Source of the DNA: Saprospiraceae bacterium
GTDB lineage: Bacteria; Bacteroidota; Bacteroidia; Chitinophagales; Saprospiraceae
Reading direction: 5' to 3'
Assembly: GCA_021604865.1 (NCBI GenBank)
Contig: BQJU01000001.1
Span: 1-64,000, forward strand
DNA length: 64,000 nt
The position numbers and the translations under genes are program-made. Positions 1 to 23,270 of this stretch are shown piece after piece; positions within the stretch are counted from its first letter, which is position 1, and every line of letters starts with the position of its first letter. The notes below the pieces were generated by a model. It worked only from the letters and a program-made list of their open reading frames with translations. It did no database searches and was not told the origin of the DNA.

Positions 1-1727
1 AAATGAGTTATCAGGAATTGGACATTCGGTCTACCCAATTGGCTCATCACCTACAAGAAAAAGGGGTCAATCCAGGCGACTTAGTCGGCATCTGCATGGA
101 TCGTGGAGGGGAAATGATTATTAGTCTGTTGGCCATTCTCAAAGCAGGAGCCGTTTATGTACCCATCGATCCGGAATATCCACAGGACAGAAAACAGTTC
201 ATGATTCAGGATGCTCAAATGTCGCATTTGCTTTGTAGCAACCCTGGTTTTAGTCGACTGTTTGAAGAAAAAGGACTACAAGTGATCATGGTAGATTTAG
301 CCGATGAGTTATTTGAAAAAGAAAACAAATTGCCCTTAGCGGTAAAGGTTACTGCTCAGGCACCAGCCTACCTGATGTATACCTCTGGTTCCCTTGGTCA
401 ACCCAAAGGCGTAATGATCAAACACCAGTCGATTGCCCGATTGTTGTTCAATGAAGAGTTTTCCTTTTTGAGCCCGCAGACGACCCTGTATCAATATGCG
501 CCCCTTGCCTTTGATGCCTCCACCTTTGAAATTTGGGGTGCCCTGCTGAAAGGCGGCAAGCTGGTGATCGCCAATCCGGGACAAAAGAGTCTCGAAGACC
601 TGCGCACCGATTTCGAAAACTACCAGATCAATACCGTATGGCTGACCGCAGGACTTTTCCATTTGGCGGCGGATACCTTGCCTGCACTATTTGCGCCAAT
701 CCGTTATCTGCTGGCTGGTGGGGATAGCATCCATCTGTCGAGTGTGGAACGGGTGATGAACCAACATAAGGAACTCACCTTTATCAATGGTTATGGGCCC
801 ACGGAGAGTACCACCTTTGCCGTGATCCGGCAAATAACGGATATTGACACCATTGATAAGGGACTCAATATTATTGGCCAACCGATTGGCAATACCAAGG
901 CCTATGTTCTAGCTCCGGAAAGTGACCAGCTATTACCGGTGGGTTGCCCTGGCGAGTTGTGTCTTTCTGGTCCCGGCCTGGCAGAGGGCTACCTAAACCA
1001 GCCGGAATTAAGCGCTCAGAAGTTTGTAGCCAATCCCTACGGAGAGGGTGCCTTTGCTCAGCTCTATCGCACCGGAGATCTGGTCCGGTGGCTTGAAGAT
1101 GGCAGTATTGAATTCCTGGGACGCATAGATAATCAAGTAAAAATCCGTGGCTATCGCATAGAATTGGGAGAAATAGAAACGATACTCAACGACAGTGCAC
1201 TGGTCCGCCAGGGGCTAGTATTGGCCAAAGATAGCACTATGGGCAAACGACTGGTGGCCTACATCATACCGGAAAAAGGTTATGAAAAAGAAAGCTTGTT
1301 GACCTATCTCAAGTCGAAGCTTCCGGAGTACATGATGCCTGCTTTATTTATAGAAATGAACGATTTTTCACTGACCGGGAATGGAAAGCTGGACCGCAAA
1401 GCTCTACCCGAACCCGACTTGTCAGAGCTGGTGACGACTGAATATATTGCCCCTCGTAATGAGGATGAAACCTTCCTTGTAGAGACCTGGAAAAATCTGT
1501 TGAACATTGAAAAGATTGGTATACATGATAATTTCTTTGAATTGGGGGGAAACTCGCTCCTCGCAACCCGATTAGTAGCAGAAATTCAGGATGCTTTTAA
1601 CCTTCGAATTCCGCTCAAGGTTGTTTTCGAATTTTCCACGATTGCTGAGATGGGACAATATATCCAGCTCATCAAAGAAAGTAGTGCTGAGGAAGACATG
1701 CACGATGAAGAAGTATTTGAACTGTAA
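1..1727 (+). CDS. Nonribosomal peptide synthetase, C-terminal A-T portion (5' end outside window)
   Basis: The frame is open to the window edge. The first Met in view (base 3) lies inside core motif A1 (MSYQEL), so the real start is upstream. Adenylation cores are in order: LKAGAVYVPID (A2), YTSGSLGQPKG (A3), FDAST (A4), NGYGPTE (A5), YRTGDL (A7), GRIDNQVKIRGYRIELGEIE (A8), NGKLDRKALP (A10 with its Lys). A carrier domain follows, with DNFFELGGNSLL carrying the phosphopantetheine Ser. Mapping on GrsA-A gives the ten-residue code DAFWLGGTFK, the valine type, so this module probably loads Val; that is inference. A3 has Leu where the family has Thr (SGSTG). The protein ends in an acidic tail (EEDMHDEEVFEL) just before a partner starting with a docking domain 23 bases on, so it probably hands its chain to that protein. 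No epimerisation domain is visible. Confidence 0.95.
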   Translation, partial: MSYQELDIRSTQLAHHLQEKGVNPGDLVGICMDRGGEMIISLLAILKAGAVYVPIDPEYPQDRKQFMIQDAQMSHLLCSNPGFSRLFEEKGLQVIMVDLADELFEKENKLPLAVKVTAQAPAYLMYTSGSLGQPKGVMIKHQSIARLLFNEEFSFLSPQTTLYQYAPLAFDASTFEIWGALLKGGKLVIANPGQKSLEDLRTDFENYQINTVWLTAGLFHLAADTLPALFAPIRYLLAGGDSIHLSSVERVMNQHKELTFINGYGPTESTTFAVIRQITDIDTIDKGLNIIGQPIGNTKAYVLAPESDQLLPVGCPGELCLSGPGLAEGYLNQPELSAQKFVANPYGEGAFAQLYRTGDLVRWLEDGSIEFLGRIDNQVKIRGYRIELGEIETILNDSALVRQGLVLAKDSTMGKRLVAYIIPEKGYEKESLLTYLKSKLPEYMMPALFIEMNDFSLTGNGKLDRKALPEPDLSELVTTEYIAPRNEDETFLVETWKNLLNIEKIGIHDNFFELGGNSLLATRLVAEIQDAFNLRIPLKVVFEFSTIAEMGQYIQLIKESSAEEDMHDEEVFEL

Positions 1728-1750
1728 GAGCACCCAAAACCTATTAGAAT

Positions 1751-4700
1751 ATGCAGACCAATAAGGACATTGTCAATCTATTGAATAAAGCTCAGCAAAG
1801 TGGAATCACCGTATTTAAGGAAGAACAAAAGCTGAAGTTTAAAGTAGCCAAGAATACCAAGGTCGATCCAGCGATTGTTGACCTGCTCAAAGCGCATAAA
1901 CAAAAAATTCTCGCTTTTTTAGGAGATGAAATAGGTGCTGTTAACACCATTAGAGGGCAAGAAGAACAAATTAGTGTCTTTGACAGAAAAAATGTTGACC
2001 AAATACCACTTTCCTTTACTCAGGAGCGGCTTTGGTTTATCGATAGACTCTCTGGAAGTAGCCATTATCACATTCCTTTCATGAAGGGTTTTGGTGAAGA
2101 TTTGCATGTCGAAACCCTGGAATATGCTTTAAAGACACTGATAAATAGGCATGAAGTATTACGGACTGTTATCCTGGAAAAAGAAGGGAGTGCTTTTCAG
2201 CAGGTTTTACCTAAAGACAAGTGGTATTTACATTGTCTTGAAATAGAAGATTCTGAAACGGAAGCAACATTAAATAACTGGATTACACAGGAAATTAGCA
2301 GGCCTTTTGATTTGGCCGCTGACCACATGCTACGGGCTACCCTTATTAAAAAAATGGATGGCCAATACTTATTGGTCATTGTGATCCATCATATTGCTTC
2401 AGATGGATGGTCCATGAATGTGATGACCCGGGAACTTCAGGAATTGTATCAATCAAAAATGGAAGGCCGGGCTCCTGCATTGAAACCTTTAACCATTCAA
2501 TATGCAGATTACGCCTTTTGGCAAAGAAATGATTTAATAGGCACCAAGCTGGAAGAAAAGCTGGCGTTTTGGGAGCATCATTTAAAGGGAGTAACGCCTT
2601 TGAGCCTTCCACTTGATTTTGCCAGACCTCGCATGCAAAGTTTTAAGGGCGCCAGTATAAGTTTTGGCATTGACAAAGAGACCACAAAACAGTTGAATAA
2701 CCTTTGTCAAACAGAAGAGGTTACACTTTTCATGCTTTTATTAACAGCTTTCAAAGTATTGCTCTATCGATATAGCGGAGGCCAGGAAGATATTTGTGTG
2801 GGAAGCCCGATTGCTAATAGGTCACAAAAGGCACTGGAAGATCTGATCGGTTTTTTTGTAAATACGATTGCTTTGCGTAGCCATTTGTCTGAAGAGCAAT
2901 CTTTTACAGAACTGCTTCATCGTGTAAAAACGACTACACTGGACGCCTACAAACACCAGGATACCCCATTTGAGAAAGTCGTGGATCGCATCACTATAAA
3001 GCGGGACAATAGTATGAACCCTTTGTTTCAAGTCGCATTTGTACTTCAAAATGTCCTTGATATATCCCAGACGGCTGTCCAACCAATAAACAAGGAAGAA
3101 AAACCGAGTAATTACCAAATTTCCAAGTTTGACTTGACCATGAGTGCCGCCGAAACACAACAGGGCCTACTGGTCAATATCGAATATTGTACGGATCTGT
3201 TTAAAGCATCCAGCATCTCCCAGATGGCTTCCCATTTTCAACAATTGCTGTCAGCTATCATCCAGACACCTCAAGCAAGTATAGGCACCCTAAATCTGTT
3301 GTCTGATACAGAACGTAAAACGCTACTGACGGATTTTAATGCGACGGAAGCACCCTATCCGGCGGATGAAGCAATCGTTGCCCAACTAAAGAAGCAGGTA
3401 GAAAAGAATCCCGATAATCCGGCCCTGATATTTCAAAACCAAACCCTTACTTTTCGACAATTCGATGAACAGTCCAACCAATTGGCTCAGTACTTAATAA
3501 AAAAAGGGGTACAATCCAATGATTGCGTCGGACTGTTAGCGTACCGGGGGTTTGATATGATCATTGGCATTTTTGGCATCTTGAAATGTGGCGCTACCTA
3601 TGTGCCCTTAAATATCGATTATCCCAGACAACGCCTTGAATTCATTCTCGAAGATGCAGGCATTGATAAAATCGTAATTACAGGGCAGGAAATCTTGGAT
3701 CAATCTGGACTCACTGGTTACGAATGCCTGAAAGTAAGTGATGCTGCTAAATCACCCAAGACGGCTCCCGACCGCGCCCTATCCGTACACACTCCGGCTT
3801 ATGTGATGTATACTTCTGGTACTACCGGAACGCCAAAGGGTACGCTGGTTAACCAAAAGAACATCCTAAAACTGGCTTACGAACAGGAAGGAATAGCCAT
3901 CTATCCTGAGGACCGGGTTTTACAGTGGTCTAATTATGCTTTCGATGGGTCAACCTATGACATATATAATGCTCTTTTAAATGGGGCCTGCCTTTGTCTG
4001 ATTACTGAAGCTGATGTTTCAAATGCTGATCGTTTATCAGAGATCATCCAGGAAAAGAACGTGACGGTTAGTTTTTTCACTTCGGCGTTATTCAATAGCC
4101 TTGTGGATTATGCCCCCGCAGCGTTAAAAGGTATGCGGAAGGTCCTGTTTGGAGGGGAGGCCGCCTCTGCTGTGCATGTCCGAAAGGCCTTGGAGATGTT
4201 GGGCCCAGACCGAGTTGTTAATGGTTATGGACCTACTGAGACGACCACTTTTGCCACCTTTTATTCCGTTCGGAATGCAGACAATAAATACATTCCCATT
4301 GGTCGACCACTTTCGAATACACAGGTATATATCGTGAATAAATCACAACAATTAGCGGGAATTGGTATTCCTGGTGAATTGTGGATTGCTGGAGAGGGCG
4401 TCTCGCTCGGATATTTAAACAGACCTGACCTGAATAATGAACGGTTTATTCCAAACCCTTTTTCAGGAAATGCCAATGGAAAATTATATAAAACTGGTGA
4501 CCTGGCACGTTGGATGCCAGATGGCAATATCGAATTCATTGGGCGGAAAGATGACCAGATTAAGATGCGTGGGTATAGAATTGAATTGGGCGAAATCGAA
4601 TCTATTCTGGGGGAATGCCCGTTGGTGCAACAAGGCGTCGTCTTGCTCCACCAGGACCAGCAGGGTAATAAACGACTTGTTGCATATATCGCACCAACAA

Positions 4701-7700
4701 AAAAAGGGTTAGATAAATCAGAAATTCAGTCCTTTTTAAGTCTGGAATTACCAGATTACATGGTGCCGTCACTGATTGTCGAACTAGAAGCCTTGCCCCT
4801 GACGACAAATGGGAAAGTCGATAAAAGAGCCTTGCCGGAACCGGATTCAGCTGAATTGATTGGGGAGGCATACCTAGCTCCGCGCAATGAGATAGAAATT
4901 CAATTGGTAAATATCTGGCAGGAATTACTCGACCTCCCCAAAGTAGGTGTACTGGATAATTTCTTTGAATTGGGTGGCCACTCTCTTTTGGCAATACGGG
5001 TGACTTCCGCGATTCGGAAATCTCTAGAAATCGAGCTTATCGTTGGAGATATATTTATGTATCCAACCATTGAAAAACTGGCTGCCTTTCTGGAAACGAA
5101 CCAAAACACCGCCGCTCTGCCGCCATTGATTCCTGGCCCGCGGCCCGCACGCATCCCGCTTTCCTATTCCCAGGAAAGGCTTTGGTTTATCGATCAGTTT
5201 GGTGGTAGTTTACAATACCATATTCCGGTGGTTTATGGGGTGAATAATGAGCTGGAAAAAGAAGTTCTGGAAAAAGCCCTTAAAACATTGATCAGCCGGC
5301 ATGAGATATTGCGTACGGTTATCCAATCGGAAGATGGAGAAGCCTATCAAAAAATCATACCAGCAGATGATTGGACCATGGAATACCATGAGAGTCCTGG
5401 ATTTAATTCGGATGCGGATAGTCAGGTATACATCGAAGCTATCGTAAATAAGCCCTTTGATCTATCCAATGATTATATGCTGCGGGCACATCTGGTGAAA
5501 TGTGGAGAGGAGGATCAACTTCTGATATTGGTTATACACCATATTGCTTCGGATGGTTGGTCCAATGGCATCCTGGTGAAAGAATTAATGGCACTTTTTG
5601 ATAATCCCCAAGGAAGCAATACATTGGAATTGCCCCCCTTATCCGTCCAATATGCGGATTATGCTATTTGGCAAAGGAATCACCTTTCCGGAGAATTTTT
5701 GAAGTCACAATTGGATTGGTGGCAACAATATTTGGCAGGGGCGTCTCCTCTTAATTTACCCCTTGATTTTCCACGTCCACCAATACAAAGTACCAATGGC
5801 GCAGTTGTCGGATTTCAAATTGAAAAGCCAATAAAAGATCAGCTTAATAAGCTCTCCCTTGATCATGGCGTCAGCTTGTTTATGACCTTATTATCAGCAT
5901 TTAAGGTCCTGCTGTATCGTTATAGTGAACAAACGGATATCTGTATTGGTACCCCCACGGCCAATCGGAACCAAAGGGAAGTGGAGTCCATGGTTGGCTT
6001 TTTTGTCAATACCTTGGCGTTGCGTAGTGATTTAAGTGGAAATCCCGAATTCACCTATTTGCTGGAACAGGTTAAAACCAATACACTAGTCGCTTTTTCC
6101 CACCAGGACGTGCCTTTTGAACAAATTGTTGAATGTGTGGAAAAAGAACGTAGCCTAGATAGAAATCCGATTTTCCAGGTCATGTTTGCTTTACAAAATA
6201 TCCCTGATAGTCCCGACCTGGAATTGGGACCGGCACAACTTTCCCAAAAATCTGCTGGTCGCCGATCTGCTCAATTTGATTTGACCTTTTCCATCGTTGA
6301 ATATGCTAGCGGGTTGCTTGTAGAAATTGAATATTGTAGCGATTTGTTTGCGGAATCTACTATTCAGAGGATGGCTGGCCACTTCCAGAATTTATTGGAG
6401 GCCATTGTCATAAATCCATCAATGCCTATTGGCCAGCTTACCTTGTTGAACGATCAGGAAAGACAGCAACTATTATTTGAATTCAACAATACTAAAAATC
6501 ATTACCCCAGAAATAAAACAGTTATTGATCTGTTTGAAGAACAGGTATTAAATCGCCCGAATGAGAAAGCATTAGGGTGCGAGGGACAAGTGTTGACTTA
6601 TCTCGAGTTGAATAAGAGAGCCAATCAACTGGCACACTACCTTATCGAAAAAGGCTTGAAACAAGAGGATTTGGTAGCGCTATGTGTAGACCGTTCGTTG
6701 GAAATGATCGTTGGTATATTGGGTATATTAAAAGCCGGATCAGCTTATATCCCCATTGATACCAATTATCCAGTTGACCGGATTGAATTCATCCTGGAAG
6801 ATACTAAAGCGCCATTTGTCATCAGTAAAAAACAATTGGGTGTTCTACCATCAAAGATGGAAGGAAAAACCTGCATTTTGCTGGATGAAGAAGTGCCATT
6901 CCTGCTCCAGGCTCCAGTTGAAAACGTATCAGTCGATGTAAGGCCCGATCATCTAGCTTATGTCATTTACACATCTGGGTCGACAGGAAAACCTAAAGGG
7001 ACCCTGATCAGTCATCAAAACCTGATGATGCGTTTGCAGGGAGAAGTTGAATTGTTGAAGGTTAATACATCTCTTAAATCCTGTTTGCTGACCAACTATG
7101 TTTTTGATGTATCGCTATTGGAAATATTTTTACCTCTTATTGTAGGTGGTTCTTTACAAATCCCCCATCACAACACCATTTTTGACTCCGATAAATTAAT
7201 ACAATTGTTAGTCAAAGAAGGGGTTACCCAAATTCAAAGCACACCCAGCTTTTTAACAAGCATAATGCATGCAATTGAAGGGCATCTGGCTAGCCAATTA
7301 AAACTGGAAATGATCTGTACCGGTGGCGAATCCTTAAATGGAGATTTGGTAAAAACCATCCGCGCCAAATTACCACAGGTACAATTGAACAATCATTATG
7401 GACCAACGGAAATTACGATTGATGCTATTGTATCGGAAAACGTAACTGCCTTCGAGCGAAATATCATCGGACGCCCGATTGCAAATACAGCGGCTTTTAT
7501 CGTTGATACCTCCCGCGAATTGGTACCTGTTGGTGTCATCGGTGAATTATTAATAGGTGGCGATGGTGTGTCGGAAGGATATTTGAATCGCCCGGAATTG
7601 ACACCAGAAAAGTTTATCCCCCATCCCTTTGACCCAACCTCCAGCTCGAAGGTATATTGTACCGGCGATTTGGCCCGCTGGCTACCAGATGGCACCATCG

Positions 7701-10700
7701 AATTTTTTGGCCGAAAAGACGATCAGGTGAAAATTCGCGGACACCGGGTAGAATTGGGTGAAATTGAAGCCATCCTGGCTGCATGTGATTTGGTAAATCA
7801 GTGCACCGTTCTGGTTAAGAAAAACACACAAAACGCCAAAAGCCTGATTGCGTATGTCATTCCCAAGGGTGCTTTTCTCAAGGAAGAGATTATTGCTTAT
7901 TTGAAGCCAATATTGCCTGATTACATGATTCCTGATTTGATCATTGAATTGGAAAAATTTCCATTGAATGCAAACGGAAAAATAGACAAACAACGATTAC
8001 CGGATCCCGATATTAACGCGTTGATGCAAGACGATTTTGTTGCGCCAAGCAACGATACGGAACATCAACTAGCAATTATCTGGAAGGAATTGTTGGGCTT
8101 AGAAAAAATCGGTATCCACAATAATTTCTTTGAGTTGGGAGGTCACTCATTGATGGCAATGCGAGTTGCTTCGGCCATTCGCAAAGAATTTGATGTGCAC
8201 CTGGAAATTAGAGAGCTATTTTTATCGCCCACGATCAGTGAACTAGCACAGAAGATTGAGCATTTGGAAATAGGCGGATCATTGCCACCCATAATTAAGG
8301 TAGAAAACAAGCCATCAAAAATACCCCTTTCCTACGCACAGGAAAGACTCTGGTTTATTGACCAGTTTGAAGGGAGTGTTCAGTACCACATGCCTACGGT
8401 TTTGCGCCTTAAAAAAGAGCTCAACAAAAACGCATTGGAACAAGCATTGCTTGCTTTGGTAGAACGCAATGAAATTCTTCGGACGGTTATCCGGTCAGAA
8501 AATGGCATCACCTTTCAGGAAATCATGCCCGCTGAATATTGGAAATTGGGATACACAGAAAGTGCCGGATTTGAAACGGATGCTCAATTGCGTGAAATAA
8601 TTACCTCCAAGGTTCAGCACCCCTTTGATCTATCCAATGATTATATGTTGCGGGCTCATTTGATCGCTTGTGCTGAAAATGATCATGTGCTGATTTTAGT
8701 CATGCATCATATCGCATCCGATGGATGGTCATTTTCCCTTTTGATTAGAGATCTGATGGAATTATACGAGGCAAAATTGAACAATAGAAATCCTGTTTTG
8801 CCGCCTTTAAAAATTCAATATGCAGATTATGCAATATGGCAGAGGGCTCATCTGAATGGTACAGTTTTGGAAGACCAACTACAATGGTGGGAGCAACAAT
8901 TGTCTGGCTTGGAACCCTTAAAATTGCCCACGGATTTCCCCCGGCCGACCAAACAAAGTACCACGGGTAGTAATATTGGGTTCTCTTTAGAGAAAGATAT
9001 GGCCAATGCTTTGAATAAACTTTCCCTACAGACAGGAACTACCTTGTTTATGACTTTGCTGGCGGCATTCAAAGTACTCTTGTACCGCTATAGCGGCCAG
9101 GAAGATATCTGCATAGGAACACCAGTAGCCAATCGGAACCAAAAAGAAGTAGAAGGCCTGGTGGGTTTCTTTGTGAATACCTTGGCGCTTCGAACAGACT
9201 TAAGCGGCAATCCGGGATTTTTGGAATTACTCAAAAGAGTCAAAACCACGTCTCTTTCTGCTTTTGCGTGTCAGGAAGTGCCATTTGAACGGATTGTAGA
9301 CCGGGTAGAGTCAAAGCGGGACCTGAGTCGGACGCCAGTATTTCAGGTAATGTTTGCCCTGCAAAACACCCCTGACTCACCTGCTTTGGAACTTGGAAAT
9401 ATTGATTTGTCTTTTGAATCTTCAGGAAGAAATACTTCCTTATATGATATCAATCTGTCCATTTCTGAAAATACGAAAGGCCTGGATATAGGAATTGATT
9501 ATTGTACAGACCTTTTCCGCGAAGAAACGATCAAACGCATGAGCCTGCATTTCCGGCAGTTGCTTCAAGCAATCATCGCCGATCCCAATCAGGCCATTGG
9601 GCAAATCAATATCCTCAACCGGGAAGAAGAACATATATTGCTACAGCAGTTCAATGATACTCAGGTCGAGTTCCCCCATCACCTAACCGTGGTGGATTTG
9701 ATTGATCAGCAAACCAGACGCACGCCTAACGCTACAGCCATTACATTTGAACAGCAGCGCCTTAGTTATGAACAGCTTGATCATAAGTCTAATCAACTGG
9801 CGCATTACCTCCGCAAAAATGGTGTTCAGACCGAATCACTTGTAGCCATTTGCCTGGACCGGTCACTGGAAATGATGATTGGTTTACTGGGTATACTCAA
9901 AGCGGGTGGAGCCTACGTACCCATTGACCCGGGTTATCCGGAAGAACGCATCAATTACATGTTACAGGATACCCAAACCCAATGGGTTATTACCTCCCAA
10001 AATATTGCAACGTCATGGGAGCAACTTCCGGAGGTACAGGTCATCGCTATCGATCGGGAATGGCCGGTTATCAGCCAGCAACCGTCGGATAAACCCAATG
10101 TTAAACTTGACGCAAAAGACCTGATGTATATCATTTATACTTCCGGATCTACTGGCAACCCGAAAGGAGTCATGAATCAGCATGAAGGGGTTATGAATCG
10201 ATTGTTTTGGGGGCAGCAACGTTATGCATTGAACCCGGAAAAAGATGTCGTACTGCAAAAAACCACTTTCTGTTTTGATGTCTCTGTATGGGAATTGTTC
10301 TGGCCATTAATTAGTGGTGCCAGGCTGGTCTTTGCAACACCCGATGGACAAAAGAATAGCAGTTACCTGAAAAACATCATCAACCAGGAAAATATTACGA
10401 TCATCCATTTTGTACCCTCTATGCTGGAGGTTTTTTTGCTAGACATTCAGGCTGATGAATGTCCGAGTCTTCAGCGGGTATTTTGTAGTGGCGAAGCCCT
10501 TAAAGCTAGCCAGGCCAAACGCTTTCGCCAATTGTTGCCGGACGTGGAATTGCATAACCTCTACGGTCCTACAGAGGCCGCCATTGAGGTTACCTTTTGG
10601 GAGGCCGTTGTTGGCAAACAGGTTCCAAATCGTATTCCTATAGGTAAACCAACTGCCAATACCCAAATGTATATACTCAATGCATCGGGGATGCCCTCGC

Positions 10701-12178: not shown

Positions 12179-12313
12179 GCGCTCTAAGCGCCAGCTATAC
12201 TTTCCTACTTGTATGTTTTGCCACCGCTTCGGGAACTCCTCATGGCTCTCGGCAGGACTATAAATGGCTTATAAACCGCTTTTCTCCATCTATTTACCTG
12301 GAAAAATTTAATT

Positions 12314-13327
12314 ATGAACACGAAATTTAAAATGTTAGAGGACGTATTAAAAATCCGGCAACTTATCGGCAATACGCCTTTGATACAGCTGGTGGAAAAC
12401 CAGTCTTACAACCTCTTTGCAAAACTCGAATACAACAACTTTTCGGGGAGTATCAAGGACCGGGCCGCCAACAATATCCTGTTTCAGGGGATTAACGACG
12501 GCAAAATCAATCCTGAAACAACTATCGTTGAATCCAGTTCCGGGAATTTAGGTATCTCCATGGCATTACATTGTAATCGACTAGGCCTGGACTTTATTGT
12601 TGTCGTTGATCCACACATCAGTAAAATCAACCTGAAACTGCTAAAGTTGTTTGCTACCAAAGTAATTATGGTAGATAAACCTGATGATACCGGCGGTTAC
12701 CTGTTAACACGGATTGAAACCGTAAAGCACATTATAGAAACGAACGAAAATTGTTTTTGGACCAATCAATACCAAAACGAAAACAATTTTAAGGGGTACC
12801 GGGATATGTCCCATGAAATCAATCAAAATTTCACTCGCCTGGACTACCTGTTTGTAGCCACCAGTTCTTGCGGCACCATTACTGGACTATCCAAATTTGT
12901 CAAGCAGTATTTTCCGGGAGTAACAGTCGTAGCTGTGGATATCAAAGGCTCATTGATTTTTAGTGACGAAAAGCATAAACGCCTTATTTCTGGTCTGGGA
13001 GCTGGCCAAAAGGCTTGCTTTTTGGAGAAGGCTTCCGTGGATGATGTGATGATTTTAAATCACCAGGAAATCATCACGGGCTGTCGGGCCATGCTCCGGG
13101 AACATTCCATTTTTGCCGGGGGGTCTTCGGGGGCTTGTTATTATGCTGCACGAAAATACCTGGATCAGCTTGCTCCGACATACCCTATCCCGAATTGTTT
13201 GATTATTTGCCCGGACAAAGGGGTCCCCTACATTGATAACATCTACAGTGAGCAATGGTCAGATCGTGTCATAAAAAGTGAACTTCCTGCTGTCGTGGAA
13301 GATCGTCAGCCAGTTTCTGAAATTTAA
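12314..13327 (+). CDS. sbnA: SbnA-like N-(2-amino-2-carboxyethyl)-L-glutamate synthase (PLP enzyme)
   Basis: 337 residues of the cysteine-synthase fold-type II PLP family. SGSIKDRAA carries the Schiff-base Lys, SSSGNLG is the phosphate/substrate loop, and ATSSCGTITG near residue 178 is the PLP-phosphate loop. The SSSGN loop, the SGLGAG segment and the following SbnB-like gene point to the SbnA subfamily rather than to CysK. SbnA condenses O-phospho-L-serine with L-glutamate to N-(2-amino-2-carboxyethyl)-L-glutamate, which SbnB then oxidises to L-2,3-diaminopropionate and 2-oxoglutarate. It lies 135 bases after the NRPS and 51 bases before the SbnB start, so it probably supplies Dap to the assembly line. 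A second in-frame ATG at 12344 is also possible; no clear ribosome-binding site separates them. Confidence 0.9.
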   Translation: MNTKFKMLEDVLKIRQLIGNTPLIQLVENQSYNLFAKLEYNNFSGSIKDRAANNILFQGINDGKINPETTIVESSSGNLGISMALHCNRLGLDFIVVVDPHISKINLKLLKLFATKVIMVDKPDDTGGYLLTRIETVKHIIETNENCFWTNQYQNENNFKGYRDMSHEINQNFTRLDYLFVATSSCGTITGLSKFVKQYFPGVTVVAVDIKGSLIFSDEKHKRLISGLGAGQKACFLEKASVDDVMILNHQEIITGCRAMLREHSIFAGGSSGACYYAARKYLDQLAPTYPIPNCLIICPDKGVPYIDNIYSEQWSDRVIKSELPAVVEDRQPVSEI

Positions 13328-13378
13328 AATAAACCCTTTGATAAATCAGGTGATTTGTCAAAGCATCAAATAAAACCT

Positions 13379-14350
13379 ATGTATTACTTAAATACTAAAA
13401 GTCTGGCCTCTTTGGACCGGGATTGGAACGAATTGGCCAGGGTTATTGAAAAAGCCATTTTTTGTCAGGGCGAAAAGGAATTTGCCCAACCGGTAAAACC
13501 CTACCTGCGGTACCGGGATATGTCCAACCGGATTATTGCTATGCCTGCCTTCATTGGTGGAGAATTTAACCTTTCAGGCATTAAATGGATTGCAAGTTTT
13601 CCAAAAAATCTCGACAAGGGCATCAAGCGGGCCCACTCGGTGAGCATCCTCAATGATGCCGATACTGGCATTCCGGTTTGTGCCATCAATACGACCCTGA
13701 TCAGTGGTATCCGTACGGCATCAGTGACGGGTTTAATGATAAAAAAATACCTGGAACTGCGCCCGGAATTGACTGATCTCGTTGTAGGCATGACCGGCTT
13801 TGGGCCCATTGGACAGCTGCACCTTGAAATGACCGCTGCATTATTGGGCGACCGCCTGAAGGAGTTTCGCATCTTTGATATTAATCCGATCGACCCATCC
13901 CTGATCCCCCCCGCATTGGCGGACAAAGTGGTCCTTGCCAATTCTTTTGAGCAAGCCTTTGAACAAGTTGACCTGTTTATCACAGCTACCGTTTCCAGCA
14001 AGCCTTACATCGATCAGAAACCCAAACCGGGCAGCCTTCATCTCAATGTTTCCCTACGCGACTATCACGTCCAATTTATGGATTATGTAGATATCATGAT
14101 TGTCGATGATTGGGAAGAAGTATGTCGAGAGAAAACGGATATTGAAATGATGCACCTCGAAAAAGGCCTTCAGAAGGAAGATGTCCTAGATCTGGTGGAT
14201 GTGTTTTACAAACGCGCATTTGAGAAACTTGATGCACAGCAGGTCGTTATGTTCAACCCAATGGGCATGGCCATTTTTGATATAGCCATAGGCGCTCATT
14301 TTTACGAAAAAGCAAGGCTGGAAAACGCGGGCATACTTCTTGAAAATTAA
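13379..14350 (+). CDS. sbnB: SbnB-like N-(2-amino-2-carboxyethyl)-L-glutamate dehydrogenase (ornithine cyclodeaminase family)
   Basis: 323 residues from ATG 13379. The frame can be extended to a TTG at 13355, but the family begins with the MYYLN segment, so I chose the ATG. Hallmarks are KPYLRYRD followed by NRIIAMPAFIGG, SGIKWIASFP, the Arg of LISGIRTASVTG, the nucleotide-binding segment VVGMTGFGPIGQLHLEM, and NPMGMAIFDIAIG near the end. The family uses NAD+ to cleave the SbnA product oxidatively into L-2,3-diaminopropionate and 2-oxoglutarate. The gene sits directly behind sbnA, as in staphyloferrin B and other Dap-containing peptide clusters. No siderophore synthetase (IucA/IucC type) is present, so Dap is most simply an NRPS building block here. 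Confidence 0.9.
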   Translation: MYYLNTKSLASLDRDWNELARVIEKAIFCQGEKEFAQPVKPYLRYRDMSNRIIAMPAFIGGEFNLSGIKWIASFPKNLDKGIKRAHSVSILNDADTGIPVCAINTTLISGIRTASVTGLMIKKYLELRPELTDLVVGMTGFGPIGQLHLEMTAALLGDRLKEFRIFDINPIDPSLIPPALADKVVLANSFEQAFEQVDLFITATVSSKPYIDQKPKPGSLHLNVSLRDYHVQFMDYVDIMIVDDWEEVCREKTDIEMMHLEKGLQKEDVLDLVDVFYKRAFEKLDAQQVVMFNPMGMAIFDIAIGAHFYEKARLENAGILLEN

Positions 14351-14466
14351 AACCGTTGCGGGACGTGGAATTAATAACGATCCGATTTCAAAAGCACTCC
14401 TAGAAAAAGGGAGCCTATTGATACCTCATCCCTGTGGCAACAACTCTTCATCAAAAACCTTTCATC

Positions 14467-15228
14467 ATGTCTAATGTAATTTTAATATCATTGAATAGCA
14501 CTGCCACAAAACAATTGATATTTAGAGGCAGTCTGATTGCCTTATTTCTGCTTTTGTCTCTGTTGGGTATATTAAGTTTCCCTCTCGGCAATATTTTCCA
14601 TTCTGGCTTTGGCGTAGGGTTCGCATCGCCGCAGGATTCCGTGATCATTATGCTCGAAGATTTTGAAGTGAATAAAAACCACAAATACTACCAGGATTTT
14701 ATTCAAAATCAGGATCCAGGCTTCATAAAGACCTTATACTACGCCAATGCCGACAAAAGAAAACAGGATGGGCGATTTAAAGTCTTTAATAAAAATCAAC
14801 CCGCCAAAATTGTCACCGACAAGGGTTCAAAAAATTCTTTGATTTTTACGCTGAGACAAGGCGACAAAATCTGGTATGATACCCTACAGAATTATGTACA
14901 TCTACAGGTCCTAGAAGCGGGTTCCCCACAACATGAAGCCTTGCAGCATAATCTACCCATTGGCAGCCTCCCCGCAGGTACCACGACGGCCATAAAACAT
15001 ACTAATTCCAAGGCCAAAATAACACTGGAACTTCAGAAGTCAGCTAAAACGAAGATTGACATCCTTTCTCCTGAAAAAGAATTTCTAGAATCCCTGGTAG
15101 ACAAAGAGCTGAAACAGGGAAGACACCGATTTAAGTGGAAAAAAAGGGGGTATGCCCCTGGCTATTACTGGCTAAAGATTGAAGTAGATGGCAAGGTGAT
15201 GAGCCAACAAATTGAAGTAGAAGATTAA
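14467..15228 (+). CDS. Membrane-anchored or exported protein with C-terminal FlgD/Ig-like domain, unknown function
   Basis: 253 residues from ATG 14467; a GTG at 14434 would add 11 residues. A hydrophobic segment (LIALFLLLSLLGILSF) near residues 19-35 can serve as a signal anchor or signal peptide. The middle is lysine- and asparagine-rich without a motif I recognise. The last 60 or so residues (from KIDILSPEKEFL to YYWLKIEVDG) resemble the FlgD-type Ig or type IX sorting-like beta domains common in Bacteroidota surface proteins. It sits between the Dap genes and the hydroxylase, on the same strand, with 116 bases before and 42 after. It may be an unrelated passenger or a cluster-specific surface protein; I cannot assign a role. 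Confidence 0.75.
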   Translation: MSNVILISLNSTATKQLIFRGSLIALFLLLSLLGILSFPLGNIFHSGFGVGFASPQDSVIIMLEDFEVNKNHKYYQDFIQNQDPGFIKTLYYANADKRKQDGRFKVFNKNQPAKIVTDKGSKNSLIFTLRQGDKIWYDTLQNYVHLQVLEAGSPQHEALQHNLPIGSLPAGTTTAIKHTNSKAKITLELQKSAKTKIDILSPEKEFLESLVDKELKQGRHRFKWKKRGYAPGYYWLKIEVDGKVMSQQIEVED

Positions 15229-15270
15229 AGCGAACTATAAGTACAATTTCCTAATCCGAAAACAATTATT

Positions 15271-16896
15271 ATGGAAATCCATGACAATGATTTAGTTTAT
15301 GTAAAACCCAATTTAGTTATCGAACCGTTGGTAGACAATTGGTACGCCTGGTCGCACCTGATTTCACCAACGACGGCAGCTATGAACATTAAAGATCGAC
15401 ATTTAAAGATCATGAATTCTTATGTTCAAAGCCCAATGATTCACGCTGCCGCAGTAAAAAGCCCTAAGATGTTAGGTGGCCCATTCATCGATTATGGCGG
15501 AAAACGAGTGGATGAAATCAAGGGATTAATCTCAAACACCAAAGAAACTTGCGCAAATTTATTGGAATTTCGCGAAGCAATCCTCGAGCTCAATGATTTG
15601 CTAAAGCACGAAGCTAAAGGTTATTCATTGGCCGAGTTGTACCCAAAAATTCCTGAACCATTACAGGGGTTGGTAGAGTTGGTTTATGACCTCAACAACA
15701 ACCCTTCTTTCCGCTTCTTTGAATCGTTGGTGTATCAAACCGATTATTACAATGATGATCTTCAAAGTTTTAATTTGTTCCTCGTTCAGGACGATGACTC
15801 CAGGTCTTTCGTACTGAGTACGCCAAAATTGCCAGATGATAATATCATTCGGGTGCACCTGCCCTTTAAAAGCAAAAAAATAGACGAGCTATTTGAAATG
15901 TCAGACCATCCGAAAAGGTTTGGAGACATCAAGGATTTATTTCCAATAGAACCTGGGAAAGAAGAATTGTTTAAAAGCTTTTTTACCACAGAAGTGCCCA
16001 AAAAATACGACCGTTATCAAGGAGAGGGGGTATTGACCCGTTATTTTGGTCATGCTTGTATTCTCGCTGAAACCAAAAAGACGACCTTCCTGGCTGATCC
16101 TCTGGTTAGTTACGGTTATGAGTCTGATATTTCCCGGTATTCTTATGATGACCTGCCAGAAACCATTGACTATGTATTAATCACACACAATCACCAGGAT
16201 CATATTCTGTTTGAAACGTTACTGCGCATCCGTAAAAAGATTAAACACATTATTGTACCCAAATGTAATGGAGGGTCACTACAGGATCCTAGCCTGAAAA
16301 TGATGTTTGAACATGTCGGGTTTGATAATATTATCGAATTGGGTGAAATGGAAACCATTCATTTTGATGATTGCTCCATCACCGGCATCCCTTTTATGGG
16401 CGAACATAGCGATCTCGATATCCGGAGTAAACTATGCCACATGGTTCGTTTCAAAGATGACTTTAAAATGTTGTTCGCTGCGGATTCCTGCAACGTGTCG
16501 CCACCATTGTACAAACGTATCCATGACGTGGTAGGGGATATCGATGTCATTTTTCTGGGAATGGAATGTGAGGGTGCTCCTCTTTCCTGGTTATATGGAC
16601 CAATCATGCCAGAACCGCTTGCCAGGGATATGGATGAATCCAGACGACTGGCCGGTTGTGACTTTCACGAATCAAAAGCATTGGTCGATATCTTCAATCC
16701 AAAAAATGTGTTTGTCTATGCGATGGGCGTTGAACCTTGGTTGAAATACATCAGCTCTATCAAATATACCGACGAATCAAAACCTATCGTGGAATCCAAC
16801 AAGCTATTGGAATACTGTAAATCAAAAAACATCGTGCCTGAACGGCTCTTTGGAGAAAAAATAATAGAATATAAAGGTAGTGCTGTTCTTACCTAG
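15271..16896 (+). CDS. CmlA-like diiron beta-hydroxylase with metallo-beta-lactamase fold
   Basis: 541 residues, close to the length of chloramphenicol CmlA. An N-terminal helical region (about 1-250) precedes a metallo-beta-lactamase-fold domain opening at YFGHACILAE. The metal ligands are readable: THNHQDH gives His306, His308, Asp310 and His311, GEHSD gives Glu378, and FAADS gives Asp405. This is the set used by CmlA as I recall it, shifted by one or two positions. CmlA-type enzymes use a non-heme diiron site and O2 to hydroxylate the beta-carbon of an amino acid held on an NRPS carrier domain. Together with the neighbouring NRPS genes this predicts one beta-hydroxylated residue in the peptide. 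The target carrier cannot be told from sequence. A generic UlaG-type hydrolase is less likely because of the long N-terminal domain and the Glu ligand. Confidence 0.85.
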   Translation: MEIHDNDLVYVKPNLVIEPLVDNWYAWSHLISPTTAAMNIKDRHLKIMNSYVQSPMIHAAAVKSPKMLGGPFIDYGGKRVDEIKGLISNTKETCANLLEFREAILELNDLLKHEAKGYSLAELYPKIPEPLQGLVELVYDLNNNPSFRFFESLVYQTDYYNDDLQSFNLFLVQDDDSRSFVLSTPKLPDDNIIRVHLPFKSKKIDELFEMSDHPKRFGDIKDLFPIEPGKEELFKSFFTTEVPKKYDRYQGEGVLTRYFGHACILAETKKTTFLADPLVSYGYESDISRYSYDDLPETIDYVLITHNHQDHILFETLLRIRKKIKHIIVPKCNGGSLQDPSLKMMFEHVGFDNIIELGEMETIHFDDCSITGIPFMGEHSDLDIRSKLCHMVRFKDDFKMLFAADSCNVSPPLYKRIHDVVGDIDVIFLGMECEGAPLSWLYGPIMPEPLARDMDESRRLAGCDFHESKALVDIFNPKNVFVYAMGVEPWLKYISSIKYTDESKPIVESNKLLEYCKSKNIVPERLFGEKIIEYKGSAVLT

Positions 16897-17014
16897 TTTT
16901 AGGCCATGGAATTTCCTGTCCTTTAATACCCTTTATTCCTAAGCCTTTGCATGGATATCAATGCCTGCAAATGGTTTAGGGTAATGGGGATTTTTCACTT
17001 TAAAACTAAAAAAC

Positions 17015-18751
17015 ATGATTATTTGTGGAATAAAAGTCACTCATGACGGAGGAATTGCCTTAATTGATAATGGTGAATTAAAGTTCAGCATTGAAATGGA
17101 AAAAATCAATAACAACCACCGTTATAGTGGTTTGACAGATTTATCCAAAATTCCTGAATTGCTGGCAGAATACGGTTATTCGCCAGATATGGTCGACCAT
17201 TTTGTTGTAGATGGCTGGCACGGCACCGGTGCTCACTGGCGTGGCGAACCCGTTCTGGAACCGTTTGATGGAGACACCCCACTAAAGGTCACTGTAGCTC
17301 CATATAATGAATTAGTCCTGACAGATAACATTCTAAAACCTCACCTTTTTGAAGGAGGCCTTTCGATCCAGGGAAAGACTTACGACTATCGTAGCTATAT
17401 GCATGTTGCGGGCCATGTTTGTTCGACTTATGCCACCAGTCCTTACGCAAAGAATGGCGAACCAAGCTTTGTTTTAGTCTGGGACGGCGGGCAGTATCCA
17501 CGCCTCTATTATGTGGATCCAGAAGCTGGAACGATACAAAACCTGGGACACCTTTTCTTCATCCTCGGCACGATGTACAGTGTGATGGGGCATTATTTCG
17601 GGCCCTATAAAAAATCGGAAGAAGAATTGCGCAAAGATCGCGAACAGATGACCATCGAGGGTTATTTTGGAGGGTACTCCATCGCCGGCAAATTGATGTC
17701 CTACATTGCTTTTGGCGAACCGGATGAAACACTCATCCAGGAACTGGATAAGATATACAAAAAAGAGCTGGAGATCTCCAATCTGTTTGAACATAAATTT
17801 ATGACGGCAGTAAGCGATTACGTAGCAGGAAAGGGCTTTTCCGATGCGTCGGTGCTGGCTTCTATGCACGTTTTTCTGGAGCGAATGTTACTTAAAAACC
17901 TGGCCAAAAAAGTCAAAAAGTATCCTGACTTTAAGCGAAACTTTTGTTTCTCTGGCGGGTCTGCTTTAAATATTAAGTGGAATAGTAAAATCCGGGATAT
18001 GGGGTTGTTTAACGGTATTTGGGTGCCTCCAGTTCCAAATGACGCGGGCAGTGCTATTGGTGCAGCATGTAGTGCGATGGCTGAACTCACCGGTCGGTTC
18101 TCCATTGACTGGACAGTCTATTCCGGACCAAAATTAAGGAGTAATGAACCTCAGGGAGGTTGGGAAAAACGCCCTTGCAATATTCCGGAATTAGCTGCTT
18201 TCCTGGCAGAAATTGATGAACCGTTGGTGTTCCTATCAGGAAATGCAGAATTGGGCCCACGAGCGTTGGGCAACCGAAGTATTTTGGCACCGGCCAATCA
18301 TCCGGAAATGCAGGCCAAACTCAATTGTGCCAAATTACGCGAAGAATTCAGACCGGTAGCGCCAATTTGTTTGGAAGCTTATGCCGCCGATGTTTTCGAT
18401 CCCGGGGATGCTGATCCCTACATGCTTTTTGACCACAAAGTCCGCGAATCATGGAAGGAAAAGGTTCCGGCCATTGTACACCTGGATGGAACTGCCCGGC
18501 TGCAAACAGTCAATAAAGAACAAAATGAAACCATTTGGCAATTGTTAACCGAATACCGTGCTATAACGGGAATTCCCTTATTGTGTAATACCAGTGCAAA
18601 CCTAAACGGCTCGGGCTTTTTCCCGGATATAGAAAGCGCTGCACGATGGGGCCGGTCCAATTATATTTGGTCTGAAGGAATGCTTTATGAGCAAGTTGTC
18701 AAATTCCAGTTTGAAACGGTTCAATCCAACCTGGAAGTACCCACTGTATAA
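17015..18751 (+). CDS. NodU/CmcH/TobZ-family carbamoyltransferase
   Basis: 578 residues. The N-terminal Kae1-like part carries the HxxxH metal motif (His130 and His134 in HVAGH) and the WDGG nucleotide-binding segment near residue 158. The C-terminal part has the family signature ELGPRALGNRSILA, then FRPVAPICLE and IPLLCNTSANL. The family makes carbamoyl-adenylate from carbamoyl phosphate and ATP and moves the carbamoyl group to a hydroxyl, less often an amine, of an antibiotic or sugar. It lies 118 bases after the CmlA-like gene, at the end of the cluster. It could carbamoylate the beta-hydroxyl made by that enzyme, the serine hydroxyl, or the side-chain amine of Dap (beta-ureidoalanine is known in other clusters). 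Which one is not decidable here. Confidence 0.92.
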   Translation: MIICGIKVTHDGGIALIDNGELKFSIEMEKINNNHRYSGLTDLSKIPELLAEYGYSPDMVDHFVVDGWHGTGAHWRGEPVLEPFDGDTPLKVTVAPYNELVLTDNILKPHLFEGGLSIQGKTYDYRSYMHVAGHVCSTYATSPYAKNGEPSFVLVWDGGQYPRLYYVDPEAGTIQNLGHLFFILGTMYSVMGHYFGPYKKSEEELRKDREQMTIEGYFGGYSIAGKLMSYIAFGEPDETLIQELDKIYKKELEISNLFEHKFMTAVSDYVAGKGFSDASVLASMHVFLERMLLKNLAKKVKKYPDFKRNFCFSGGSALNIKWNSKIRDMGLFNGIWVPPVPNDAGSAIGAACSAMAELTGRFSIDWTVYSGPKLRSNEPQGGWEKRPCNIPELAAFLAEIDEPLVFLSGNAELGPRALGNRSILAPANHPEMQAKLNCAKLREEFRPVAPICLEAYAADVFDPGDADPYMLFDHKVRESWKEKVPAIVHLDGTARLQTVNKEQNETIWQLLTEYRAITGIPLLCNTSANLNGSGFFPDIESAARWGRSNYIWSEGMLYEQVVKFQFETVQSNLEVPTV

Positions 18752-22505: not shown

Positions 22506-23270
22506 ATGACACCAGATTTCACCAAAGATGACTTAGTGGGATGGATCGCTTCCGGCAAGGAAAACCAGGTCATGGAAGCCTTGTTAACCATTGCCAAATA
22601 CCAGCAAAAAGATGTACAAAGCCTGATTTTTCTGACCTCTAATAAATACCGGAAACTCAGACAAAATATGTCTTTAGGAAGTATTTCACGGGAAAATTCC
22701 AGCATCATTTCCGCAGAGATCAATCAAAATCTGTTGGAGATCATCGACCAGGTTCGGCTGGAGGAAATCACAGAAAAAGAAGTCAAAAAACAAATAAGGC
22801 GAGAGAAAAGACAAAAAAGCTTATGGCCCTTGGTGATGAGCGCCGGTTTTTTGCTGGCCATGGTTGTCGCTATCCTTTTTATTCAGGGGCGTTTAGGGTT
22901 AAATAAAACTCCAGCGCCGGAAAACTACCTCAATAGTTGGGCCGGAACCTGGGAACAAAACGTGGAGATTGGACCGGATACTCATGTTGATGGCATCGTT
23001 ACATTTGAAATACAAGAAAATGAGGTTGTCGGAATGTCTGAGTCAAAATTCCCAAATGGCATTGCTGTCAAAAACCGCTTGTACAACATTGTTTTTTCAA
23101 AAAATGGAAAAGTACTGAAGGGGAAATGGAAATATGAGGAAGTGCTGAACGTCACGGAAGGGAATTTTGAGGTAACTCTGGGAAAAGATAAAAATAACTT
23201 TTCAGGGACTTATTTTGGTATGGATAATCCGGATGAGGCTTATAAGTGGACAGGGAAGCGAAAGGATTGA
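22506..23270 (+). CDS. EAD11-like effector-associated domain fused to a membrane-anchored beta domain
   Basis: 254 residues. Residues 5-85 form a helical domain with EALLTIAKYQQKD, a run SLIFLTSNKYRKLRQNMSLG and INQNLLEIIDQ. This is the pattern of effector-associated domain 11, a small adaptor domain catalogued in Bacteroidota conflict and immunity systems; the match is by recall of the pattern and not a search. A basic linker and one transmembrane helix (about 106-127) follow, then about 120 residues, beta-rich, with SWAGTWEQNV and NFSGTYFG, reminiscent of lipocalin-like folds. EADs usually recruit another protein with the same EAD; none is seen in this window. The gene is alone, with 298 bases before and 159 after. 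Confidence 0.65.
   Translation: MTPDFTKDDLVGWIASGKENQVMEALLTIAKYQQKDVQSLIFLTSNKYRKLRQNMSLGSISRENSSIISAEINQNLLEIIDQVRLEEITEKEVKKQIRREKRQKSLWPLVMSAGFLLAMVVAILFIQGRLGLNKTPAPENYLNSWAGTWEQNVEIGPDTHVDGIVTFEIQENEVVGMSESKFPNGIAVKNRLYNIVFSKNGKVLKGKWKYEEVLNVTEGNFEVTLGKDKNNFSGTYFGMDNPDEAYKWTGKRKD

What the first reader, a model, noticed from the sequence alone, without database searches (positions are those of the whole stretch)
1..18751. NRPS cluster for a Dap-, serine- and carbamoyl-containing hydroxylated peptide
Seen: A-T + DD-(C-A-T)3-TE, SbnA/SbnB, CmlA-like diiron enzyme, carbamoyltransferase, all on one strand. Derived by hand: codes DAFWLGGTFK (Val), DGYFLGGTFK (unassigned aliphatic), DVLQCGHIDK (unassigned polar), DVWHFSLIEK (Ser-like). 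Inferred: ...Val-Aaa-(Dap?)-Ser with one beta-hydroxyl and one carbamoyl group. I do not recall a Bacteroidota product of this kind.
Basis: partly seen in the sequence, partly recalled or inferred. Interest (0 to 1): 0.75.

Follow-up and report, generated by a model that had tools for sequence, protein, structure and literature searches.

The report
Tail of giant bacterial lipopeptide cluster
These genes are the last fifth of a very large bacterial assembly line, split between two pieces of the genome assembly, that probably makes an unknown 18-residue fatty-acid-capped peptide with several added hydroxyl groups and perhaps a carbamoyl group.

Summary
But the window starts at a contig end. Contig C21 ends in the window's first 141 bases, and the reading frame stays open across the join. 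The 18.7 kb is therefore the 3' end of a ~84-kb, one-strand cluster. It has seven synthetase genes, 18 adenylation domains, a starter-type condensation domain, three epimerases, two embedded methyltransferases, and extra TauD and JmjC-ankyrin hydroxylases.

The likely product is an 18-residue lipopeptide, not a short Val-Aaa-Dap-Ser peptide. Dap on module 3 (DVLQCGHIDK) is probably wrong; residue 3 (DIWQSTADDK), in a separate Dab/Dap-type clade (support 0.998), is likelier. The CmlA-carbamoyltransferase pair stands beside the same two-module stretch in one other MAG. Chitinopeptins, Bacteroidetes lipodepsipeptides with Dap and beta-hydroxy residues, are the closest published kind; they have 14 or 15 residues and no carbamoyl is mentioned. 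New member of a known kind; product and modification sites are predictions.

The parts
1..1727 (+). 3' part of NRPS gene N5 (A domain of residue 15, code DAFWLGGTFK, Val; then T). The 5' part lies on contig C21:97720-102784
   Evidence: first 141 bases identical to the end of C21; joined frame of 2216 aa without a stop (C-A[Thr]-T-C-A[Val]-T)
1751..12178 (+). NRPS gene N6, 3475 aa: docking-(C-A-T)x3-TE, terminal synthetase
1769..1921 (+). TubC_N-like docking domain (marginal score)
   Evidence: 26.4 bits, cut-off 26.0
3392..4837 (+). A domain of module 16, code DGYFLGGTFK, aliphatic (Ile/Val-like)
6539..8002 (+). A domain of module 17, code DVLQCGHIDK, polar residue of unknown identity; clade with G136:C16 and G023:C101
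9707..11176 (+). A domain of module 18, code DVWHFSLIEK, Ser-like
11495..12103 (+). Type I thioesterase (GYSMGG active-site motif), release or cyclisation
12314..13327 (+). SbnA-family PLP enzyme, Dap precursor supply
   Evidence: TIGR03945 359.2 bits, over cut-off; the only hit in this genome at E <= 1e-80
13355..14350 (+). SbnB-like dehydrogenase, Dap precursor supply
   Evidence: TIGR03944 299.2 bits, under cut-off 326.9, profile positions 1-325 of 327
14434..15228 (+). 264-aa protein with a hydrophobic N-terminal stretch; its C-terminal region resembles the C-terminus of a 574-aa protein, BlaR1-like by eye, at the same place in G136:C16; role unknown
   Evidence: (no family)
15271..16896 (+). 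CmlA/FrsH-type diiron beta-hydroxylase with HxHxDH motif
17015..18751 (+). NodU/TobZ-type carbamoyltransferase

Best explanation
The finding is the 3' end of a ~83.8-kb lipopeptide biosynthetic cluster (C21:37569-102784 joined to C1:1-18751) in a Bacteroidota genome, probably Saprospiraceae. Shown from sequence: an UpxY/RfaH-like antiterminator, type II TE, outer-membrane barrel, an ABC exporter close to the cyclic-peptide exporters, ketosynthase, PPTase, seven NRPS genes, a racemase, a TauD and two JmjC-ankyrin hydroxylases, SbnA/SbnB, CmlA and a carbamoyltransferase, all on one strand. Inferred: N0's starter-type C domain acylates residue 1, and 18 modules then extend the chain. Predicted order: Lys-like, unknown, Dap/Dab, Ser, Gly, D-Leu, Me-Asn, D-Asp, Gly-like, Asn, Asp, D-Asn, Me-Tyr, Thr, Val, Ile/Val-like, X (DVLQCGHIDK), Ser. 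The N6 thioesterase then releases the chain or closes a macrolactone. Inferred: SbnA/SbnB make the Dap loaded by module 3. The JmjC pair and TauD hydroxylate Leu/Asp/Asn residues, perhaps in the epimerase modules. CmlA hydroxylates residue 16 or 17 while it is bound to the carrier, and the carbamoyltransferase caps a hydroxyl, most likely nearby.
For: Contig join: exact 141-base overlap of contig ends, the only other match to that stretch among the 9 hits in the genome, with the frame open across it and a full-length A domain restored. Gene gaps are under 300 bases, one strand. Domain layout and codes. Three E domains (HHLAxDGVSW), each followed by a C domain of the LQEG type in the next module. 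N0_C1's best solved relative is the RzmA starter C domain, 112 bits against 79 for EntF (PMC7804268, passages seen). The exporter's best family is TIGR01194, 281.5 bits, just under its cut-off of 286.2. N1_A2 lies in a 12-leaf clade, 11 of the 12 with DIW codes, support 0.998. CmlA 80% and NodU 70% stand adjacent in G136:C16 after the same DGYFLG-DVLQCGHIDK module pair. NodU homologues occur in 4 of 199 family genomes, all 4 among the 9 of 199 with CmlA. The JmjC enzymes keep HxD...H. Cupin_8 enzymes were proposed to hydroxylate Leu and Asn in epimerase modules of scytocyclamides (PMC7524897, passages).
Against: The contig join is inferred, and a collapsed repeat at this A domain is not excluded. 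N0 ends in C and N1 begins with A-T, with two genes between, so colinearity there is assumed. N1_A1 (DARHLSLMIK) is very divergent and no residue can be named. SbnB is under its cut-off, and so is the exporter's family score. G136:C79 carries SbnA/SbnB without any DIW-type code among its six A domains, and the short G185:C275 shows one code, not DIW. G073:C4 has DIW-type codes in a genome without a good SbnB, so DIW means Dab or Dap. In G023:C200 and G105:C368 the carbamoyltransferase stands beside an Asn module, not beside the DVLQ pair. No product is known, and no result here fixes the hydroxylation or carbamoylation sites.
Confidence: 0.75

Rival explanations
1. One reading: Dap is loaded by module 17 (N6_A2, DVLQCGHIDK), next to the SbnA/SbnB genes, and hydroxylation and carbamoylation are on the C-terminal residues.
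For: SbnA/SbnB lie directly downstream of N6. DVLQCGHIDK is a polar pocket with Asp at position 331. 2 of 3 clusters with this code also have SbnA/SbnB (G000, G023:C101).
Against: Both of those clusters also hold a DIW-type code. G136:C16 has DVLQCGHIDK with no SbnA/SbnB on the contig, whose 5' end is missing, and the only good SbnB hit of that genome sits in another, TE-terminated cluster. The domain's best matches outside its own clade are Ser/Thr-type, not DIW-type. PMC12283262 states that two Dap codes share 80% identity with Dab codes (passage).
Confidence: 0.15
2. C21 and C1 are not neighbours; the window's genes end a different, shorter assembly line whose 5' part is elsewhere.
For: Assembly breaks happen at repeats, and other NRPS fragments exist in the genome (C153, C159). 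C153 is 85% identical to window 1345-1561 over 217 bases.
Against: The 141-base overlap is exact and was found only at these two contig ends. The join restores one intact A domain and an open frame of 2216 aa. C21 ends inside an NRPS gene with no TE after it, and C1 starts inside one and has the TE.
Confidence: 0.08
3. It is a chitinopeptin-type cluster proper, making a variant of that known iron-chelating family.
For: Same phylum; SbnA/SbnB, CmlA-type enzyme, ABC exporter, starter C, epimerases, methylated residue, TE.
Against: 18 modules against 14-16. The predicted order Leu-Asn-Asp-Gly-Asn-Asp-Asn-Tyr-Thr-Val has no match to NMeVal-Thr...Lys-Dap-Leu...Ile as given in the text. A carbamoyltransferase and Cupin_8 enzymes are not named in what I read ('carbamoyl' 0 occurrences; sections 7 and 8).
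Confidence: 0.05

Closest known systems
Chitinopeptins (Chitinophaga eiseniae, C. flava; PMC9248904)
   Same: Bacteroidetes cyclic lipodepsipeptides from large NRPS clusters with SbnA/SbnB, CmlA-type features, exporter; Dap, Ser, D-residues, several beta-hydroxy residues, one methylated residue
   Different: 14 or 15 residues (16 predicted in C. niastensis), other sequence, no carbamoyl mentioned; here 18 A domains, NodU-type carbamoyltransferase, tandem JmjC-ankyrin hydroxylases, racemase (the paper notes no racemase in trans)
Scytocyclamides / laxaphycins (PMC7524897)
   Same: Two Cupin_8 hydroxylases (LxaF-G) in an NRPS lipopeptide cluster, proposed to hydroxylate Leu and Asn in modules with epimerase domains (passages)
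   Different: Cyanobacterial, PKS-initiated, 11 or 12 residues; whether LxaF-G carry an ankyrin tail was not checked
FrsH / CmlA diiron beta-hydroxylases (PMC7794379; PDB 8a90, 4jo0)
   Same: Window enzyme matches 8a90 (452 bits) and CmlA 4jo0 (394 bits) over nearly its whole length, with HxHxDH kept. FrsH hydroxylates carrier-bound Leu (passages). That 8a90 is FrsH is recalled, not read
   Different: Substrate here unknown
G136:C16 = CALFWZ010000016.1, uncultured Saprospiraceae MAG
   Same: CmlA (80%) and NodU (70%) adjacent; preceding NRPS holds DGYFLGVTYK then DVLQCGHIDK
   Different: Other residues (Thr-Thr-Thr-DAEHLGKVSK before the pair, Gly-Leu-Gly after it), no SbnA/SbnB on the contig, 5' end missing

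Membership tests
Type I NRPS lipopeptide assembly line | Repeated C-A-T modules ending in a TE | tested here: met
   18 A domains in seven genes, TE at the end of N6
Type I NRPS lipopeptide assembly line | Starter condensation domain for N-acylation | tested here: inconclusive
   N0_C1 is closest among solved structures to RzmA-Cs (7c1k/7c1h); sequence match only, no tree of C domain types and no assay
SbnA/SbnB Dap pathway | Adjacent SbnA and SbnB of the curated families | tested here: inconclusive
   SbnA over cut-off, SbnB 299 bits under 326.9; neighbours in order
SbnA/SbnB Dap pathway | Dap loaded by an A domain of the line | tested here: inconclusive
   N1_A2 in the Dab/Dap-type clade; no biochemical test possible
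CmlA-type diiron beta-hydroxylase | CmlA_N domain plus metallo-beta-lactamase fold with HxHxDH | tested here: met
NodU/TobZ-type carbamoyltransferase | Carbam_trans_N and Carbam_trans_C domains | tested here: met
   (profile positions 2-346/346 and 12-151/170)
Chitinopeptin cluster family | 14 to 16 modules with NMeVal-Thr at or near the start and the beta-OH-Asp/Phe/Ile pattern | tested here: not met
   18 A domains, other order
JmjC/Cupin_8 hydroxylase | Cupin_8/JmjC domain with HxD...H iron triad | tested here: met
   (H144, D146, H222 kept in 3 of 3 aligned sequences)
Carbamoylated product | Carbamoyl group on the peptide | not testable with these tools
   needs product or enzyme assay

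The most novel reading that the evidence does not exclude
The cluster makes an 18-residue lipopeptide in which a portable two-gene cassette, a CmlA-type hydroxylase and a NodU-type carbamoyltransferase, turns one carrier-bound residue of the conserved [Ile/Val-like]-[DVLQCGHIDK] pair into an O-carbamoyl beta-hydroxy amino acid, while a tandem pair of JmjC-ankyrin enzymes hydroxylates the D-residues. I know of no peptide with that combination (recall; paper searches listed none).
Probability: 0.25. Interest if true: 0.6.

Novelty: new member of a known kind. Interest (0 to 1): 0.4.

Why it matters
It turns a truncated 18.7-kb observation into what looks like a complete ~84-kb orphan cluster with a residue-by-residue prediction, in a bacterial group for which I recall few described peptide products. 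It moves the likely Dap position from residue 17 to residue 3, which changes which domain should be assayed. It also singles out a conserved hydroxylase-carbamoyltransferase pair and an unusual JmjC-ankyrin hydroxylase pair as enzymes worth testing.

Tried and rejected
Short tetrapeptide product: rejected once the upstream contig was found.

Dap on module 17: judged unlikely (see rivals).

Chitinopeptin identity: rejected on module number and order.

Naming the CmlA target from co-occurring codes in 46 named CmlA loci: led nowhere. 40 of 46 loci gave A domains, and I saw no residue common to them.

Finding a published match to DVLQCGHIDK or DIWQSTADDK: 0 papers (open-access text; codes in tables or supplements may be missed).

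The 264-aa gene as a tailoring enzyme: no family; its one solved-structure hit is at chance level (E 1.9). It resembles only the C-terminal part of a BlaR1-like protein.

A search with an alignment of the three DVLQCGHIDK domains over 395 phylum genomes gave, outside this genome, at best 512 bits against 914 for the own domain; only 3 candidates per genome were scored, and I did not read the codes of those hits.

Full report
Observation. There is an A-T end of one NRPS, a 3475-aa NRPS (docking-(C-A-T)3-TE), SbnA, an SbnB-like enzyme, a CmlA-type diiron hydroxylase and a NodU/TobZ-type carbamoyltransferase. A 264-aa gene at 14434-15228 was not mentioned; it matches no Pfam or NCBIfam family. 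The four codes were reproduced exactly by alignment to the PheA pocket. The docking domain is marginal (26.4 bits, cut-off 26.0) and SbnB is below its curated cut-off.

The window starts at a contig end. The window is bases 1-64000 of contig C1 (359,735 bases) in a 7.97-Mb genome of 161 contigs. Contig C21 (102,784 bases) ends with exactly the window's first 141 bases. The search of the own genome with window 1-2000 gave 9 matches, and only C21 covers that stretch besides the window itself. Joining them leaves a 2216-aa frame open and restores a full A domain. An exact 141-base overlap looks like a k-mer overlap of a de Bruijn assembler (inference).

The whole cluster. From C21:37569 to C1:18751 (about 83.8 kb after removing the overlap) the genes are on one strand with gaps under 300 bases. 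In order: UpxY/RfaH-type antiterminator (151.8 bits, cut-off 100); type II TE; outer-membrane barrel protein; ABC exporter (best family TIGR01194 cyclic peptide export, 281.5 bits, cut-off 286.2); FabF-like ketosynthase; PPTase; N0 (C-A-T-C, 1488 aa); Asp/Glu-type racemase; TauD dioxygenase; N1 (5349 aa, A-T-(C-A-T)4-E); two Cupin_8/JmjC proteins with C-terminal ankyrin repeats (Ank_2 33.5 bits in the first, over the 27.3 cut-off; 23.5 in the second, under it); N2 (2956 aa, C-A-MT-T-C-A-T-E); N3 (2180 aa, (C-A-T)2); N4 (4061 aa, (C-A-T)2-E-C-A-MT-T); N5 (2216 aa, (C-A-T)2); N6; SbnA; SbnB; the 264-aa gene; CmlA; carbamoyltransferase. Upstream lie a spermidine-synthase-like and a UDG-family gene and two small ORFs of 206 and 135 aa that I did not search; downstream lie a CarboxypepD_reg protein and a GH9 cellulase. 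I take these as the borders.

Codes and likely residues (assignments from general knowledge of Stachelhaus codes): 1 DTESIGTVCK, Lys-like; 2 DARHLSLMIK, unknown, a divergent domain (25-33% identity to the six best matches shown); 3 DIWQSTADDK, Dab/Dap type; 4 DVWHLSLIDK, Ser; 5 DILQLGMIWK, Gly; 6 DAWFLGNVVK, Leu, with E; 7 DLTKIGEIGK, Asn, with an embedded FkbM-type methyltransferase; 8 DLTKIGHIGK, Asp, with E; 9 DILQVGFIYK, Gly-like; 10 DLTKIGEIGK, Asn; 11 DLTKIGHVGK, Asp; 12 DLTKIGEIGK, Asn, with E; 13 DASTIAAVC(K), Tyr, with an embedded PRMT5-like methyltransferase (the last position reads E or a gap because the insert disturbs the alignment); 14 DFWNIGMVHK, Thr; 15 DAFWLGGTFK, Val; 16 DGYFLGGTFK, Ile/Val-like; 17 DVLQCGHIDK, unknown polar; 18 DVWHFSLIEK, Ser. 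The three E domains carry HHLAxDGVSW, and the C domain after each carries the LQEG motif read here as D-to-L type (motif meaning recalled). N0_C1 is closest among solved structures to the starter C domain of RzmA (PMC7804268, passages), hence a lipopeptide. Residue 2 rests on a split module (C at the end of N0, A-T at the start of N1) with two genes between.

Where does Dap go? A FastTree tree of 187 A domains from this and other fetched loci places N1_A2 in a 12-leaf clade (11 DIW-type codes and one DVWQIAADIK; support 0.998), and N6_A2 in a separate 3-leaf clade (support 1.0) with the DVLQCGHIDK domains of G136:C16 and G023:C101. Outside that clade N6_A2's best matches are Ser/Thr-type. NRPS clusters seen with SbnA/SbnB on the same contig are six: this one, G023:C101, G023:C200, G346:C3, G136:C79 and the short G185:C275. 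Four of six have a DIW-type code; G136:C79 (six codes) and G185:C275 (one code) do not. G105 has a DIW-type code on C368 and an SbnA-like gene on another contig, C516, and is not counted. Of the 46 named CmlA loci with up to 10-kb flanks (some cut short by contig ends), 0 show SbnA/SbnB, and in the 40 that yielded A domains no DIW-type code was seen; short flanks limit this. Against a strict reading, G073:C4 has three DIW-type codes in a genome whose best SbnB hit is 7e-4, so the code means Dab or Dap. Of six SbnA hits beyond this genome in 298 order genomes (E <= 1e-80), one (G346) lies beside an NRPS. I conclude that residue 3 is the likelier Dap site, about 0.7 against 0.15 for residue 17.

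Hydroxylation and carbamoylation. CmlA homologues (E <= 1e-60) occur in 9 of 199 family genomes and carbamoyltransferase homologues (E <= 1e-100) in 4 of 199 (apparently the same draw, as the handles agree); all 4 are among the 9. Leaving out this genome, that is 3 of 3 inside 8 of 198, about 4e-5 by the hypergeometric formula (by hand), uncorrected for both occurring in NRPS-rich genomes. In 395 phylum genomes only this one has the carbamoyltransferase at E <= 1e-120. In G136:C16 the two genes are adjacent (80% and 70% identity) after an NRPS with DGYFLGVTYK-DVLQCGHIDK, the same pair and order as modules 16-17 here. 1 of 46 named loci, that same record, has both enzymes (L073 has only a 123-aa piece of a NodU-like match). 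In G023 the carbamoyltransferase is on C200, 36 kb from a CmlA gene and not on the contig with DVLQCGHIDK; in G105 the two are on different contigs. In G023:C200 and G105:C368 it sits beside an Asn module, so its target cannot be named. The closest solved hydroxylase, 8a90, is called FrsH from memory; FrsH hydroxylates carrier-bound Leu (PMC7794379, passages), which favours an aliphatic target such as residue 16. The JmjC-ankyrin pair (60% identical to each other, iron ligands kept) was found in no other of 199 family genomes at E <= 1e-40. A Niastella populi Cupin_8-like protein beside an Asn module (26% identity) lacks the ankyrin tail. Two Cupin_8 enzymes were proposed to hydroxylate Leu and Asn in epimerase modules in scytocyclamide biosynthesis (PMC7524897, passages); the three epimerase modules here are Leu, Asp and Asn.

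Comparison with the known. Chitinopeptins (PMC9248904; abstract, passages and sections 7 and 8 read) are the nearest published kind. The same paper says that the sbnA/B subcluster is abundant in Bacteroidetes clusters, so the Dap part is not unusual in itself. Number and order of modules, and the carbamoyltransferase and JmjC-ankyrin genes, differ. Searches for this combination in print found none in their listings, within open-access text only.

Verdict. Real, larger than described, an orphan member of a known kind. Class, join and domain order are well supported. Residue assignments are predictions. Dap at residue 3, hydroxylation sites and carbamoylation site are inferences.

Noticed in passing
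L019:1-1041 and L019:1085-2137 (C21:67636-69772): Tandem JmjC (JMJD5/FIH-like) hydroxylases with C-terminal ankyrin repeats, 60% identical, inside the NRPS cluster; no homologue at E <= 1e-40 in the other 198 family genomes searched. Ankyrin score of the second copy is below Pfam's cut-off.
   Followed up: partly
L016:1-492 (C21:37569-38060): UpxY/RfaH/LoaP-like NusG paralogue at the head of the ~84-kb one-strand cluster, a likely antiterminator for a giant operon.
   Followed up: no
L012 and L013 (contigs C153 and C159 of the same genome): Further NRPS fragments on 5.4-kb and 3.9-kb contigs, not identical to the cluster (C153 85% to window 1345-1561 over 217 bases): at least one more NRPS locus.
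   Followed up: partly
L127, L144, L145, L128 (G023:C200:20001-97685) and L147 (G105:C368): Two other genera of the family have NRPS clusters with a NodU-type carbamoyltransferase beside an Asn module, DIW-type (Dab/Dap) modules and a Cys-type code; the G023 one also has a ketosynthase-like gene, SbnA/SbnB and CmlA. A second kind of carbamoyltransferase-bearing NRPS cluster.
   Followed up: no
window 14434-15228; L037: The 264-aa gene resembles the C-terminal part of a BlaR1/M56-like protein that follows a BlaI-like gene at the same place in G136:C16; possibly a decayed regulator (BlaI/BlaR1 named by eye from sequence).
   Followed up: partly
window 22506-23270: Protein with effector-associated domain EAD11, of the kind found in bacterial conflict systems (the link to conflict systems is recalled).
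   Followed up: no
L014:5479-19125 (C21:10263-23909): 4548-aa protein of HYR domains with a weak T9SS sorting tail, upstream of the cluster.
   Followed up: no
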